Source: Pseudomonadota bacterium | GTDB taxonomy: Bacteria > Pseudomonadota > Gammaproteobacteria > Steroidobacterales > Steroidobacteraceae | Direction of reading: 5' to 3' | DNA: 46,790 nucleotides | Assembly: GCA_019352035.1 (NCBI GenBank) | Contig: JABBNZ010000025.1 | Location: 1-46,790 of the forward strand | In this document: in pieces, positions 41 through 10,574 of the stretch | Numbering within the stretch: position 1 is the stretch's first letter | Layout: each line of letters begins with the position of its first letter | The notes under the pieces: model-generated | The model's database searches: none | The model's input: the letters and a program-made list of their open reading frames with translations, nothing else | Told to the model about the DNA's origin: nothing | Position numbers and translations under genes: made by a program

Positions 41-496
41 TTAGGCATGCTTCCGCTCACGCTGCGCTCGCACCGCCGCGAATACTTTCACTGCTGGCAC
101 TCCGACTGCAGCTGCAAGCCGCTCGAGCATGTCAGTTCCAGGATCAAGTCGGCCGGATTCAATACGGGCGATATAGGACTGTGTTGTTCCGGCTCGCTCG
201 GACAACTTAACCTGGGACAAGCCGGCGGCCAGTCTCAACGCGCGAAGGGAGTTTGATCCAGGCTCCAGTATCTCGCCCAACGTGCGGCGCGCTTTCTCGA
301 ACAGGACGGCCATGTCCGGCTTGGATTCAAGCTTTCGAATCAATGCTGCCAGAGGCTTCCCGCCGCTCAGCGGCTTGTCCGTCGGCACCTTCGCCTCAAA
401 GTACAGTACCTCTCCGGATGACTTAGGTTGGCTGCCCGTCTGTAGCAACGTCCCAGTCGTAGAGGATTCGGCGCGAAAGCTCGCTTTTGGGGTCAT
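41..496 (-). CDS. XRE-family antitoxin (HigA-like)
   Basis: Predicted DNA-binding antitoxin of a type II toxin-antitoxin pair, 151 residues. The C-terminal half is a Cro/C1-type helix-turn-helix (about residues 82-140), with LRLAAGLSQVKLSERAG, TTQSYIARIESG and a closing LERLAAAVGV segment. The first 75 residues have no motif I recognise and may be the toxin-binding part. The toxin gene lies directly upstream on the same strand, and the two reading frames overlap by 74 bp. The toxin-first order is typical of higBA-like modules. Start chosen at the ATG at 496; a later start would remove the overlap but shorten the N-terminal extension. The fold is clear; the pairing is inferred from context. 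Confidence 0.82.
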   Translation of the reverse strand: MTPKASFRAESSTTGTLLQTGSQPKSSGEVLYFEAKVPTDKPLSGGKPLAALIRKLESKPDMAVLFEKARRTLGEILEPGSNSLRALRLAAGLSQVKLSERAGTTQSYIARIESGRLDPGTDMLERLAAAVGVPAVKVFAAVRAQRERKHA

Positions 497-1212: not shown

Positions 1213-2541
1213 TCACTCGCCGCTGAGGGGACAAAATAGCTCTAGTTGCGAGCTAGTAGTATCTCGCTTTTGGCCAGAGTTTTGGAAACTTCTCTGACTT
1301 TGTGCCCGAACCTGCGGGCAAGCGTTTACGTTCGCGCGTTGGTTAGTTTCGTCGGTAACCTGCGTCGCACAACTGACGCCGCGCAGCCCGTCGAGATAGT
1401 CCGCCCACGCCTGCATCATCTTCCTGCGCTCCGCCAGTCGCTCGGCTCGGTTATACGCTGCCCGGACTTTGTTCCGCTCGGCGTGCGCCATCTGCAATTC
1501 GATCACGTCAGGGTGCCAGCCGAGTTCATTGAGGCATGTGCATGCCATGGCTCGAAACCCGTGTCCGGTCATCTCATCACGCGCATAGCCCAGGCGTCGC
1601 AAAGCGGCATTCACCGTGTTCACGGACATCGGCCTATCTGAGGTGCGAAGCGACGGGAAGAGGTACCTGCCCTTGCCGGTCACGCTGCGGAGCTCTCGGA
1701 GCAGGGTGACCGCCTGAGAGGCCAGCGGAACGATATGCCGCTCCCGCATCTTCATCCGCGCTGCCGGTACCCGCCATTCCGCCGTTTGCAGGTCGATCTC
1801 ACTCCATTCCGCCGCGCGAAGCTCGCTGGGACGTAGAAAGACGAGAGGGGACAACTTCAGGGCAATCAGCGTCGTCGGATGGCCTATGTAGCCGTCGATG
1901 GCGCGGAGGAGGGCGCCGATCTTGACCGGCTCCGTGATTGCCGCGCGGTTCTCCACCACGACCGGCGCCAAGGCGCCCCGCAGGTCAGACGTGATGTCCC
2001 GCGTCGCCCGACCCGTCGCGATGGCGTACCGGAAGATCTGCCCGCAGCGCTGCAGGGCTCGGTGCGCGGTCTCATTCATCCCTCGGCCCTCGATTGGCCG
2101 CAACACAGCCAGGACCTCAGGTGCCGTGATCTCAGCGATCGGGCGGGACCCCAGGCGAGGGTAGACGAACGACCCCAAAATCCAGCGCGCCTTGGTCATC
2201 GTGATGGGCGCGAGCCTCTCGGCCTGCATCTCCAGCCATTCCTCGGCGATCAGCTTGAAGGTGTCCGCCCTGGCGATCTTGACGGTCCGCCGCTGCACGC
2301 TCGGGTCGATCCCTCGAGCGAGGAGCTGCCGGGCCTCCTGCAGTTGCTCCCGCGCATACTGCAGCGTCACATCCGGGTACACACCGAGCGAAATCCCGCG
2401 CTCCCTCCCGTCATATTTGTACTTGAACCGCCACCACCGCGACCCGTTCGGGTTGACCACCATATACAGCCCGCGATCGTCATAGACCTTGTATGCCTTC
2501 TCCTTCGGCTTGAGGCTCCGAATCTTCGCATCCGACAACAT
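1213..2541 (-). CDS. P4-type tyrosine integrase (DUF4102 arm-binding domain)
   Basis: Site-specific recombinase of 442 residues that inserts and excises a genomic island. The N-terminal 1-90 is the DUF4102-type arm-binding domain (KIRSLKPKEKAYKVYDDRGL, then a GVYPDVTL-like strand). A SAM-like core-binding domain follows at about 95-190, then the catalytic domain. The catalytic set is complete: Arg in LRPSELR, Lys in MKMRERH, HGFR, the second His in QMAHAE, and the nucleophile Tyr in RAAYNRAE. About 75 residues follow the Tyr, longer than I expect and rich in Gln/Thr/Cys. GGTGGAG precedes the ATG. The gene begins about 210 bp from the 3' end of a tRNA-Leu gene and reads away from it, the usual layout for tRNA-targeted islands. 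The element therefore extends off the left edge of the window. Confidence 0.95.
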   Translation of the reverse strand: MLSDAKIRSLKPKEKAYKVYDDRGLYMVVNPNGSRWWRFKYKYDGRERGISLGVYPDVTLQYAREQLQEARQLLARGIDPSVQRRTVKIARADTFKLIAEEWLEMQAERLAPITMTKARWILGSFVYPRLGSRPIAEITAPEVLAVLRPIEGRGMNETAHRALQRCGQIFRYAIATGRATRDITSDLRGALAPVVVENRAAITEPVKIGALLRAIDGYIGHPTTLIALKLSPLVFLRPSELRAAEWSEIDLQTAEWRVPAARMKMRERHIVPLASQAVTLLRELRSVTGKGRYLFPSLRTSDRPMSVNTVNAALRRLGYARDEMTGHGFRAMACTCLNELGWHPDVIELQMAHAERNKVRAAYNRAERLAERRKMMQAWADYLDGLRGVSCATQVTDETNQRANVNACPQVRAQSQRSFQNSGQKRDTTSSQLELFCPLSGE

Positions 2542-2753: not shown

Positions 2754-3091
2754 TGGTGCCCGGGGCCGGACTCGAACCGGCATGGGGTTGCCCCCGAGGG
2801 ATTTTCGTACCACTACAGCTTTCGCTGCTGCGAGGCCGGCGGCCTTTACGCCGCTCCGCGCATTTGTGGTCTGGACTTTACCTTCACCTTGCCGCGTCCC
2901 CGAGGGTGCGGTTTAGGCGGGGGCCGTCAAGTCTCTACACTTTCCGCGGGTCTCCCGCGGCTTAGCTCGGTATTGCAGCCACCGTCACGTGCTGCTGGTT
3001 CACCGAATTTGACCCCATTCACGCCGGGCGTTTCCGCGCCGGGTGCTCAAGTTTTCAAGTCCCTTGCGTCTACCGATTTCGCCACCCGGGC
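2754..3091 (-). tRNA. tRNA-Leu(UAA) interrupted by a group I intron
   Basis: The 5' exon occupies 3091-3057 and the 3' exon 2805-2754, including an encoded CCA. Joined, they give an 87-nt leucine tRNA. The acceptor GCCCGGG pairs with CCCGGGC. A class II D-arm is present. The anticodon stem is AGGGA/TCCCT around the loop CTTAAAA (anticodon UAA). A long variable arm has a GGGG/CCCC stem, and the T-stem is GCCGG/CCGGC around TTCGAGT. The intron lies between anticodon bases 1 and 2 (after U34). A TAGAAT string 16 bp upstream of the 5' end could be the -10 box. The 3' end adjoins the integrase element and is its probable attachment site. Without splicing this RNA cannot form a normal anticodon loop. 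Confidence 0.95.
2806..3056 (-). ncRNA. Group I self-splicing intron in tRNA-Leu(UAA)
   Basis: A 251-nt insertion removed from the anticodon loop. Group I hallmarks visible: the 5' exon ends in U (3057) and the last intron base is G (2806). A CTTGAG segment near the 5' end fits the internal guide. A Q/P4-like stretch (AATACCGAGCTAAGCC) precedes an R-like GTAGAGACTTGACGG (around 2937-2923). An S-like AAAGTCCAGACC (2879-2868) supplies the partner strand, so GACTT (2933-2929) pairs with AAGTC (2878-2874) as P7. A P8-type hairpin sits between them. Order and wording closely follow the cyanobacterial/plastid tRNA-Leu(UAA) intron (IC3-like). No homing endonuclease ORF is present. The call rests on motif reading, not a covariance model. 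Confidence 0.92.
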
Positions 3092-3238
3092 AACGGGTGC
3101 GGGGGCGATTCTACCTAAGTTGCGGCTGCCCGATCGGGCCGGCGGAAGCCGTAAGCATCCCTACCTATGGTGGTAAGCTACTGAATTGGTAAGACTTGGC
3201 GCTGAAGTCCCGCTGGTTCGTGCCTGAATTAAGGGGTC

Positions 3239-6028: not shown

Positions 6029-7993
6029 ATGATTCCCGAGCTCGGCGAGTTCGCGCTGATCCTGGCGATGCTGCTCTCGGCGCTGCAGGCGTTCTTCGGC
6101 ATCGCGGGGCCGGCGCTGAAGCGCGATCGCTGGATGGCCGCCGTGCTGCCGGCCGTCTCCGGTCAGTTCGTGATGGTCGCGGTATCCATGGGGTGTCTGA
6201 TCACCTCGTTCGTGAACAACGACTTCTCGGTCAAGTACGTCGCGGAGAATTCCAACTCCGCGCTGCCGCTCTTCTATCGCGTCGCGGCGCTCTGGGGCGC
6301 GCACGCCGGCTCGCTCATCCTCTGGATCTTCCTGCTCGCCTTCTGGTCGATCGCGGCGGCGATCGGCACGGCCAGGCTGCCGAAGCCCTTCGCTTCGAGA
6401 GTGCTCGGCGTGCTCGGGGTCATCAGCTTCGGCTTTCTCCTCTACACGCTCGCCACCTCCAACCCGTTCCTGCGCCTGGATCCGCCGTGGCCGGACGGGC
6501 AGTCCCTGAACCCGCTCCTGCAGGACCCGGGCCTAGCCGCCCATCCGCCGGTCCTCTACACCGGCTATGTCGGCCTCGCGGTGGCCTTCGCCTTCGCGGG
6601 CGCGGCCATGCTCGAAGGGCGGCTCGATCGGGAGTGGGCGCGCTGGACGCGCCCGTGGACGACGGCCGCCTGGGCATTTCTCTCGTGCGGCATCGCGCTC
6701 GGCAGCTGGTGGGCGTACTACACGCTGGGGTGGGGCGGCTTCTGGTTCTGGGACCCGGTGGAGAATGCGTCCTTCATGCCGTGGCTCATGGCCACCGCGC
6801 TCATCCACTCCCTCGCCGTGACCGAGAAGCGCGGGCTCTTCAAGAGCTGGACGCTGCTGCTCGCCGTGCTTGCCTTCTCCTTGAGCCTCGTCGGCACCTT
6901 CCTCGTGCGCTCGGGCGTCCTCGTATCGGTTCACTCCTTCGCGGCAGCCCCGGGACGCGGCGAGTTCATCCTGACGTTCCTCATCATCATGATCGGCAGC
7001 GCGCTCGCGCTCTACGCCTGGCGGGCGCCGCTTTTGAAGTCGGAGGCGGGCTTCGAGCTCACCGCGCGGGAGTCCTTCCTCCTCTTCAACAACATCCTGC
7101 TCGTGACCGCCTGCGCCACCGTGTTCGCCGGCACCATCGCGCCGCTCATCGCCGCGCCCCTCGGGCTCGGCAAGCTCTCGGTCGGACCGCCTTATTTCAA
7201 CCCGACGTTCCTGCTCTCGGTCCTGCCGCTCATGGCGCTCCTCTCCGTCGGCATTCATTCGCGCTGGAAGCGCGGCAGGCTCGGGAACCGCTCGCGCATC
7301 CTCATCCTGACGCTCATCGCCTCGGCCGTGATCGGCTGCGGCGTGGTGTTTGGCTTTTTCACCGGCGGACGGGTGCTCTCGCCGATCGGCGTCACGCTCG
7401 GCGTGTGGATCATCATCTCCTCGCTCATCGAGCCCATCGACCGCCTGCGCCGGCACATCACGATCCCGCGCGCGGTCCTGGGGATGACCCTCGCGCACAT
7501 CGGGCTCGGCATCTTCGTCATCTCCATCACCTCGGTGGAGGCCTTCACGGCCCAGCGCGACGTGGCGCTCGCGCAGGGCGGCATCACGCGGCTCGGCGCG
7601 TATCAGTTCCAGTTCGAGGGCGTCAAGCCAATCCAGGGGTCCGACTACGATGGCGTCGCCGGCACCGTCCTCGTCAGCCATGATGGCTCGCCGGTCGCGG
7701 TGATGCGCCCCGAGAAGCGGGAGTACTTCGTCCAGCACATCGGCACGACCCATTCGGCGATCTACATGTACCGGGTCAGCAACATTCTGGTCGCGCTCGG
7801 CCAGGATCTCGGGGACGGCCGCTGGAGCCTGCGGGTGCAGGTGAGGCCGCTCGTGACTTTCATCTGGCTGGCCGCATTCATCATGGCAGCGGGCGGCATG
7901 CTCGCCATTTCCGATCGCCGCTATCGGATCGCGCAGGCGCGTGAGCCTGCGATCGAACCGGTCGGCGCCGTCACCCGGAGCGGGGCCGGATGA
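6029..7993 (+). CDS. ccmF: Cytochrome c heme lyase subunit CcmF
   Basis: Large polytopic protein of 654 residues, full length for the family. It takes heme from CcmE and joins it to the apocytochrome CXXCH with CcmG, CcmH and CcmI. The tryptophan-rich motif WGGFWFWDPVENASF is at 235-249. His-containing loops flank it (AHPPVLYTGY near 171; LVRSGVLVSVHSFA near 290), and there are more than a dozen hydrophobic helices and a periplasmic C-terminal domain. It starts directly after the ccmE stop, and its last codon overlaps the ccmG start. Confidence 0.97.
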   Translation: MIPELGEFALILAMLLSALQAFFGIAGPALKRDRWMAAVLPAVSGQFVMVAVSMGCLITSFVNNDFSVKYVAENSNSALPLFYRVAALWGAHAGSLILWIFLLAFWSIAAAIGTARLPKPFASRVLGVLGVISFGFLLYTLATSNPFLRLDPPWPDGQSLNPLLQDPGLAAHPPVLYTGYVGLAVAFAFAGAAMLEGRLDREWARWTRPWTTAAWAFLSCGIALGSWWAYYTLGWGGFWFWDPVENASFMPWLMATALIHSLAVTEKRGLFKSWTLLLAVLAFSLSLVGTFLVRSGVLVSVHSFAAAPGRGEFILTFLIIMIGSALALYAWRAPLLKSEAGFELTARESFLLFNNILLVTACATVFAGTIAPLIAAPLGLGKLSVGPPYFNPTFLLSVLPLMALLSVGIHSRWKRGRLGNRSRILILTLIASAVIGCGVVFGFFTGGRVLSPIGVTLGVWIIISSLIEPIDRLRRHITIPRAVLGMTLAHIGLGIFVISITSVEAFTAQRDVALAQGGITRLGAYQFQFEGVKPIQGSDYDGVAGTVLVSHDGSPVAVMRPEKREYFVQHIGTTHSAIYMYRVSNILVALGQDLGDGRWSLRVQVRPLVTFIWLAAFIMAAGGMLAISDRRYRIAQAREPAIEPVGAVTRSGAG

Positions 7994-10438: not shown

Positions 10439-10450
10439 CCTGCCAGCACT

Positions 10451-10554
10451 AACTAGGGGAGCTCCGGCAAGGGGCTGAGAGGCCAATGGCGCCGGCACGG
10501 CGCGGCATGGCGACCCTCTGAACCTGATCCAGTTCATGCTGGCGTAGGAAAGTT
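10451..10554 (+). promoter_or_regulatory. TPP riboswitch (thi box)
   Basis: All conserved thi-box blocks are present in order. AACT (10451) closes P1 with AGTT (10551), then come GGGGAGC, GGCTGAGA, a variable P3 stem, ACCCTCTGAACCTGATCC and GCTGGCGTAGGAA. It lies 72 bp before thiC. When TPP binds, expression should fall. I see no strong terminator with a T-run between the aptamer and thiC, so control is more likely through access to the GAGGAG ribosome binding site at 10612-10617; this is inference. Confidence 0.95.
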
Positions 10555-10574
10555 CTTTTCCGTCCGCTTCCTGA

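What the first reader, a model, noticed from the sequence alone, without database searches (positions are those of the whole stretch)
2754..3091. tRNA-Leu(UAA) split by a group I intron at the cyanobacterial/plastid position in a proteobacterium
Seen: two exons that join into a full 87-nt tRNA-Leu(UAA) with the break after U34, a 5' exon ending in U, an intron ending in G, and pairing GACTT/AAGTC as P7 with R and S-like strings. Known: this position is classic for cyanobacterial and chloroplast tRNA-Leu(UAA); the well-known proteobacterial tRNA introns sit in tRNA-Arg(CCU) and tRNA-Ile(CAU). Inference: horizontal transfer, or an old intron kept in this lineage.
Basis: partly seen in the sequence, partly recalled or inferred. 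Interest (0 to 1): 0.8.

Follow-up and report, generated by a model that had tools for sequence, protein, structure and literature searches.

The report
Self-splicing intron in leucine tRNA gene
A gammaproteobacterium carries the only leucine tRNA gene found in its genome for the UUA codon with a small, probably self-splicing RNA intron in the anticodon; such introns are known, but relatives turn out to be common, to sit in several different tRNA genes, and to be partly invisible to a standard RNA search model.

Summary
On the minus strand a 35-nt exon (3091-3057), a 251-nt intron (3056-2806) and a 52-nt exon (2805-2754) make an 87-nt tRNA-Leu(UAA) split after U34. The intron draws as a complete group IC3 ribozyme with covariation in relatives. 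A model built only from cyanobacterial tRNA-Leu introns finds it at its exact ends, its only hit in the window. No other tRNA-Leu(UAA) was found in the 95%-complete genome, inferred to be Steroidobacteraceae. Rfam's Intron_gpI misses it.

The gene lies beside ccmF across the genus, intron divergence tracks CcmF, and the intron clusters with gammaproteobacterial rather than cyanobacterial copies. It looks like an old resident with repeated loss or regain, not a recent cyanobacterial import; a deep common origin is not rejected. Interrupted gammaproteobacterial tRNA-Leu(UAA) genes are already in print, so this is a new member of a known kind.

The setting is more interesting: related introns at eight further tRNA/site combinations, tRNA-Leu(CAA) introns with C instead of U at the predicted 5' splice site, and antisense HNH endonuclease genes inside some relatives. 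Splicing is inferred, not shown.

The parts
3057..3091 (-). 5' exon of tRNA-Leu(UAA), 35 nt, ends ...GGGACUU with U34 last
   Evidence: ARAGORN with introns on L011
2806..3056 (-). 251-nt group IC3 intron, begins GAAAACUUGAG, ends GUACG (terminal G)
   Evidence: cyanobacteria-only model R2 55.3 bits at the exact ends; R1 254.2 bits; structure; covariation
2754..2805 (-). 3' exon of tRNA-Leu(UAA), 52 nt, AAAAUCCC... to an encoded CCA
3046..3048 (-). internal guide GAG: pairs with exon C32-U33-U34 (P1, U34.G at the 5' splice site)
   Evidence: read; UUGAG in 17 of 17 aligned introns, this one included
3020..3045 (-). P2 hairpin with GAAA tetraloop
   Evidence: helix 1
3011..3016 (-). P3 5' strand (pairs with 2920-2925)
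2920..2925 (-). P3 3' strand
2967..3006 (-). P4-P5 domain (P4: 3002-3006 with 2967-2971)
2939..2966 (-). P6/P6a; the place where some relatives carry an antisense HNH gene, here only a 17-nt hairpin (2944-2960)
2929..2933 (-). P7 5' strand GACUU: guanosine-binding helix
   Evidence: does not vary among the 17 Leu(UAA) introns, is GAGCA/UGCUC in the two Leu(CAA) introns aligned
2874..2878 (-). P7 3' strand AAGUC
2885..2919 (-). P8/P8b
2809..2870 (-). P9, P9a, P9b; GAAA tetraloop in P9b (2816-2827)
3108..3113 (-). TAGAAT, possible -10 box of the tRNA gene, read by eye only
   Evidence: the promoter scan listed no site

Best explanation
This is a working group I (subgroup IC3) self-splicing intron in the single known tRNA-Leu(UAA) gene of a Steroidobacteraceae genome. 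The pre-tRNA folds; P1 (exon C32 U33 U34 with intron GAG) sets the 5' splice site at U34; guanosine bound in P7 attacks after U34; the freed U34 attacks after the terminal G (2806); the 35- and 52-nt exons join into an 87-nt tRNA that reads UUA. The element is a long-standing resident of this locus in its genus, inherited mainly by descent and lost or regained several times. It belongs to a large proteobacterial family of tRNA introns, some members of which still carry an HNH endonuclease gene on the opposite strand. Anatomy, conservation, lack of a second copy in the assembly and family relations are shown; splicing, guanosine dependence and any homing role are inferred.
For: Exon/intron anatomy. 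Complete P2-P9b structure with covariation beyond shuffles and slides. The cyanobacterial model hits the exact ends and, of 34 loci given, 22 of 22 intron-bearing and 0 of 12 intronless tRNA-Leu loci. No other UAA copy found in a 95%-complete genome; UUA codons are rare but present (1 in the 7 window ORFs counted), so the gene should be needed. Of 36 congeners, 20 show the intron (2 cut by contig ends), 5 an uninterrupted tRNA-Leu(UAA), 11 neither. Of 14 further stretches asked for beside ccmF, 13 were obtained and 9 hold an uninterrupted tRNA-Leu(UAA), two of these already counted. Intron and CcmF distances correlate in 23 of the 25 intron-bearing genomes of the CcmF tree (Mantel r 0.753, p 0.0001 with 9999 permutations).
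Against: No splicing data. RF00028 gives no match. No promoter-like site was listed. ccmF lies 3 kb away, so transfer of the whole block would give the same correlation. Presence/absence needs 7 changes on the CcmF tree, at least 5 forced by starred branches, so repeated gain is possible. Introns of three congeners (G001, G002, G005) group with those of another genus (holding the genus together p-AU 0.031). In G034 no tRNA was found in the 3 kb where the gene is expected, unexplained.
Confidence: 0.93

Rival explanations
1. Recent import from cyanobacteria (or plastid DNA): the intron came with, or into, the tRNA-Leu(UAA) gene from a cyanobacterial donor.
For: Same tRNA and same position as the cyanobacterial copies, and the same guide GAG in most of them (UUGAG or CUGAG; a few read CUGGG). 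A tree that holds both Leu(UAA) sets together is not rejected (p-AU 0.398).
Against: The ten cyanobacterial introns used form their own clade (100/100) that sits with Ile(CAU), Arg(CCU) and Thr(UGU) introns (96/97), while the window's intron sits in a gammaproteobacterial Leu(UAA) set of 38 rows (84/90; ten of these rows are the two ends of five insert-bearing introns). Correlation with CcmF inside the genus.
Confidence: 0.05
2. Degenerate tRNA gene with a dead intron.
For: RF00028 does not recognise it; no promoter above threshold.
Against: All drawn pairs intact, compensatory changes among relatives, exons complete, no other UAA copy found.
Confidence: 0.02
3. Removal by a protein tRNA-splicing enzyme rather than by the RNA itself.
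For: None found; the site lies in the anticodon loop.
Against: The conserved ribozyme core would be unexplained; bacteria are not known to have the archaeal/eukaryotic tRNA-splicing endonuclease (established knowledge, not tested here).
Confidence: 0.01

Closest known systems
Cyanobacterial/plastid tRNA-Leu(UAA) group IC3 intron
   Same: tRNA, position after U34, guide GAG, IC3 core; the cyanobacterial model finds this intron
   Different: Separate clade in the best tree; P3, P7 and P8 sequences differ
[quoted passage not shown]
   Same: Gammaproteobacteria; the same two tRNA genes found interrupted here (Leu in the window, Arg in relatives)
   Different: Another lineage; that paper says that structure and type of its tRNA introns were not determined
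[quoted passage not shown] 2002, J Bacteriol; recalled, paper not held; author-name search listed no relevant paper)
   Same: As recalled: gammaproteobacterium, same tRNA, anticodon loop
   Different: Could not be compared
Azoarcus tRNA-Ile(CAU) and Agrobacterium tRNA-Arg(CCU) introns (site and hosts recalled)
   Same: IC3, tRNA anticodon loop; introns at these two sites occur in relatives here (e.g. L042, L131)
   Different: Site after U36 rather than U34; other part of the tree

Membership tests
Group I intron | Conserved core P3-P8 with the P3/P7 pseudoknot | tested here: met
Group I intron | 5' exon ends in U paired with G of the internal guide; intron ends in G | tested here: met
   CUU/GAG with U34.G; last intron base G at 2806
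Group I intron | Match to a covariance model built without it or its relatives | tested here: met
   R2, 20 cyanobacterial introns only, E 4.8e-16
Group I intron | Score over the Rfam RF00028 gathering threshold (a detection limit, not a biological definition) | tested here: not met
   at gathering the model finds 6 of 20 intron loci tried
Group I intron | Guanosine-dependent self-splicing | not testable with these tools
   needs in vitro transcription
Subgroup IC3 tRNA intron | Small, no P5a-d extension, GAAA loops in L2 and L9 (loops as recalled), tRNA host | tested here: met
   251 nt, drawing; absence of P5(a-d) in IC3 is stated in a passage of PMC11835236
Cyanobacterial/plastid tRNA-Leu lineage | Clusters with cyanobacterial copies | tested here: inconclusive
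   best tree separates them; joining them is not rejected

The most novel reading that the evidence does not exclude
Gammaproteobacteria hold a large radiation of group IC3 introns, partly invisible to the Rfam model, that moves between tRNA genes at anticodon-loop positions 33-36. [quoted passage not shown] The other is homing by an HNH endonuclease encoded antisense in P6a.
Probability: 0.5. Interest if true: 0.62.

Novelty: new member of a known kind. Interest (0 to 1): 0.42.

Why it matters
For the window: a probably essential tRNA gene that ARAGORN without introns and Rfam both miss, so the genome would look as if it lacked a decoder of UUA. For the family: one genus offers intron-bearing and intronless versions of the same tRNA gene at the same place, tRNA-Leu(CAA) introns with C at the predicted 5' splice site, and more distant relatives offer intact antisense HNH genes; together these make intron gain, loss and movement between tRNA genes testable.

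Tried and rejected
Twin introns: paired full-length R1 matches in L194, L203, L204, L205, L207 looked like two introns in one tRNA (my note). Reading them showed single introns whose two ends matched separately around an inserted stretch; in L194, L203, L205 and L207 it holds an antisense HNH-type ORF. L204 was not searched for an ORF. In the tree these ends still stand as ten separate rows.

tRNA-Gln(CUG) introns: ARAGORN's call for L042, L043 and others is a shifted boundary; if the intron ends in G the spliced loop is CUCAUAA, the tRNA-Ile(CAU) type, site after U36.

tRNA-Phe reading: for L143, L150, L151 and for L045, L167 the script prefers anticodon GAA because the intron ends in GG. I assign them to Leu(UAA) and Leu(CAA) by tRNA body and relatives; these boundaries are unsure.

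Carriage on phages or plasmids: no phage match; 6 plasmid records with partial matches, none covering 80% of the query.

Minimum-energy folding of the single strand (z -2.7) cannot show the pseudoknot and was not used as evidence. PMC12513839 proved irrelevant.

Full report
OBSERVATION. The window holds, on the minus strand, GCCCGGG...GGGACUU (3091-3057), a 251-nt insert (3056-2806) and AAAAUCCCU...CCCGGGCACCA (2805-2754). Joined, they form an 87-nt tRNA-Leu with anticodon loop CUUAAAA, anticodon UAA, cut after U34. ARAGORN without introns lists no tRNA here; with introns it calls tRNA-Leu(taa) with a 251-nt intron.

STRUCTURE. I drew P2, P3, P4, P5/5a, P6/6a, P7, P8/8b, P9, P9a and P9b on the alignment of 17 Leu(UAA) introns, this one included (A2). 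All 59 pairs are standard in the window's intron and the loops of P2 and P9b are GAAA. On the 17 sequences 97.3% of 995 cells pair, 21 pairs have changes on both sides (shuffled mean 7.6, 0 of 500 as high; slid versions at most 9), covariation score 0.188 against 0.084 shuffled and at most 0.049 slid. Caution: the structure was drawn on these sequences, they are related, and P7 does not vary among them. P7 does change coherently in the two Leu(CAA) introns aligned (GAGCA/UGCUC).

INDEPENDENT TEST. A covariance model from 20 cyanobacterial tRNA-Leu introns (A4, R2; its automatic structure looks wrong around P3) gives one hit in the window at E up to 10: exactly 3056-2806, 55.3 bits, E 4.8e-16. 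In 34 further loci it hits 22 of 22 intron-bearing and 0 of 12 intronless ones at E up to 1. Rfam's RF00028 does not find the window's intron. At gathering it finds 6 of 20 intron loci: 4 of 4 cyanobacterial, one Ile(CAU) type, one Arg(CCU), i.e. 2 of 16 proteobacterial. With a looser limit (E 0.001) it does find several gammaproteobacterial Leu(UAA) introns, some below and some above its cut-off. In the same 369 genomes of the class, model R1 rings in 58 and RF00028 in 55 (40 over cut-off); 35 genomes are shared, 23 are R1 only, 20 RF00028 only; a shared genome may be shared through different introns. So the two models see overlapping but different parts of the family and neither is complete.

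GENOME. The genome (4.5 Mb, 217 contigs, 95% complete, 2.6% contamination) has intact tRNA-Leu for CAA, UAG, CAG and GAG and, at up to 2 mismatches, no UAA copy other than this one; the tRNA family search lists 41 matches. Without this gene UUA would lack its decoder; UUA is rare (1 codon in seven window ORFs). Six same-genus contigs have the lengths of named records found by the intron pattern (G032:C44 and JANWJS010000044.1, both 64,756 bases, the latter titled Steroidobacteraceae bacterium CRAIB_MAG73; likewise G011, G020, G025, G028, G029 with records titled only at class or phylum level), so I infer Steroidobacteraceae, Gammaproteobacteria.

GENUS. In 36 congeners the search shows the intron in 20 (G008 and G027 cut by contig ends), an uninterrupted tRNA-Leu(UAA) in 5 (G003, G010, G014, G017, G022) and neither in 11; these 11 may be incomplete or beyond that search, which scored at most 12 candidates a genome. 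From the tables the tRNA lies 2.8-3.4 kb from ccmF in at least 19 genomes, with and without intron. Reading that place elsewhere, 13 of 14 stretches asked for were obtained; 9 hold an uninterrupted tRNA-Leu(UAA) (G010 and G017 already counted) and 4 hold none, three of them cut by contig ends, the fourth (G034) unexplained. On a CcmF tree of 41 genomes (25 with intron, 11 without, 5 unknown; two CcmF sequences are partial) the state changes 7 times, at least 5 by starred branches. Intron and CcmF distances correlate (r 0.753, p 0.0001) in 23 of the 25; G005 with its long insert and the cut G027 were left out. Descent with repeated loss, or with some regain, would give this; transfer of the whole block is not excluded because ccmF is linked. 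Three congeners (G001, G002, G005) have introns closer to those of another genus of the family (97/85 for the set with G366; holding the genus together p-AU 0.031), so some movement is likely.

FAMILY. Model R1 rings in 175 of 396 genomes of the order (39 of 72 genera) and 58 of 369 of the class; both draws are samples of larger groups and count introns of any tRNA. I fetched part of these places and read the host tRNA. Of 166 loci given to the boundary script (intron must end in G, five-pair anticodon stem, seven-base loop), 145 distinct introns came out: Leu(UAA) after 34: 72 (2 with an alternative); Arg(UCU) after 34: 24; CAU, mostly or all Ile type, after 36: 17 (2 with an alternative); Leu(CAA) after C34: 12; CAU after 33: 3; Ser(UGA) after 34: 2; Arg(CCU) after 36: 2; one each of Leu(UAA) after 33, Arg(UCU) after 36 and Thr(UGU) after 36 (the last with an alternative); 10 I count as misread or unassigned. 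Leaving out Thr, that is eight combinations besides Leu(UAA)/34; two of them, Ile(CAU) and Arg(CCU) after 36, are old acquaintances (recalled), and Arg(UCU) is in print as an interrupted gene. The numbers are not frequencies: loci were chosen by score and by me. By hand I read L133 and L136 as Lys(UUU), and L211 and L217 as Thr(UGU). Alphaproteobacterial loci show Leu(CAA) after U33 and a Lys tRNA (my reading of the boundaries).

LEU(CAA). In 14 Leu(CAA) introns (13 in the window's genus) the guide is UUGAG as in the window's intron and the 5' exon ends in C34. For 12 of them the script found no equally well paired boundary with U at the splice site; the other two end in GG and are unsure. So P1 should have C-G at the splice site instead of the usual U.G. 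Eight of them in the tree sit within a second group of Leu(UAA) introns (100/99 and 100/89), as if passed between isoacceptors. That natural C-G splice sites are rare is my recall.

HNH GENES. In four gammaproteobacterial Leu(UAA) introns (L194, L203, L205, L207) the P6a region holds an ORF on the opposite strand, 154 aa in three and 184 aa from an upstream TTG in L203. L205 and L207 match PHROG 10822, HNH endonuclease, at 4e-49 and 3.9e-46; L205 and L203 pass Pfam HNH_3, L207 does not; L194 was scanned against neither, L203 not against PHROGs. L205 has relatives in 234 phage records, best 52% identity over 98%. In the window's genus G005 carries the gene in two pieces (71 and 69 aa; each matches PHROG 10822). 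The window's intron has only a short P6a hairpin. A role of the endonuclease in spread is inference.

DEEP ORIGIN. On 105 matches from 100 chosen loci (229 columns; the bootstrap had not settled) the window's intron lies with 37 other gammaproteobacterial Leu(UAA) rows (84/90); ten cyanobacterial ones form one clade (100/100) next to Ile(CAU), Arg(CCU) and Thr(UGU) introns (96/97). Ten of the 38 rows are the separated ends of five insert-bearing introns. Joining the two Leu(UAA) sets costs 8.5 log units and is not rejected (p-AU 0.398). The deep question stays open.

PRINT. Seen as passages: PMC4853749 (Thiomargarita and BOGUAY, Leu-TAA and Arg-TCT), PMC8450103 (tRNAscan-SE 2.0: 36 genomes with fMet or Ile2 interrupted by group I introns, which it was not designed to detect), PMC3984707, PMC11835236, PMC3073962. 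Recalled, not held: Vepritskiy 2002, and Paquin 1997 and Rudi 2002 on cyanobacterial introns. Searches that could have shown Leu(CAA), Ser(UGA), Thr(UGU) introns or antisense HNH genes in bacterial tRNA introns listed nothing that I recognised as such from titles and abstract beginnings; most subscription papers are not in that library, so this is no proof of novelty.

VERDICT. Real, very probably functional, new member of a known kind; the surroundings are the more interesting part.

Noticed in passing
window 1213-2541 (-): Tyrosine integrase (Pfam Arm-DNA-bind_3, Phage_int_M, Phage_integrase), P4-like by recall, starting 213 bases beyond the 3' end of the tRNA: the tRNA 3' end may be the attachment site of an integrated element cut by the contig end; an HTH gene lies at 41-496 (-).
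   Followed up: partly
L041, L045, L129, L153-L157, L159, L161, L162, L166-L168: Group I introns in tRNA-Leu(CAA) with C34 as last exon base and guide GAG, i.e. [quoted passage not shown] 13 of the 14 are in the window's own genus.
   Followed up: partly
L194, L203, L205, L207; broken in L031 (G005): HNH-type endonuclease ORF on the opposite strand inside the P6a region of Leu(UAA) introns.
   Followed up: partly
L163, L169-L172, L195, L208 and others; L214; L126, L145; L130; L121, L193, L199; L192: Group I introns in tRNA-Arg(UCU) after U34 (L214 after U36), Ser(UGA), probably Thr(UGU), a CAU tRNA after U33, and Leu(UAA) after U33.
   Followed up: partly
L156 positions about 31-70 and 281-604: In G258 a second, intronless 5' half of tRNA-Leu(CAA), with no tRNA call of its own, about 250 bases upstream of the intron-bearing gene.
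   Followed up: no
L365 (G034:C56:28900-31900): No tRNA found in the 3 kb beside ccmF where congeners have tRNA-Leu(UAA), in a 94%-complete genome in which one search also shows no tRNA-Leu(UAA).
   Followed up: no
window 10445-10567 (+): TPP riboswitch, 70.6 bits, gathering 54.3.
   Followed up: no
window 7882-7974 (-): ARAGORN lists an undetermined tRNA with a 4-base anticodon inside the long ORF 6029-7993 (+); probably a false call.
   Followed up: no
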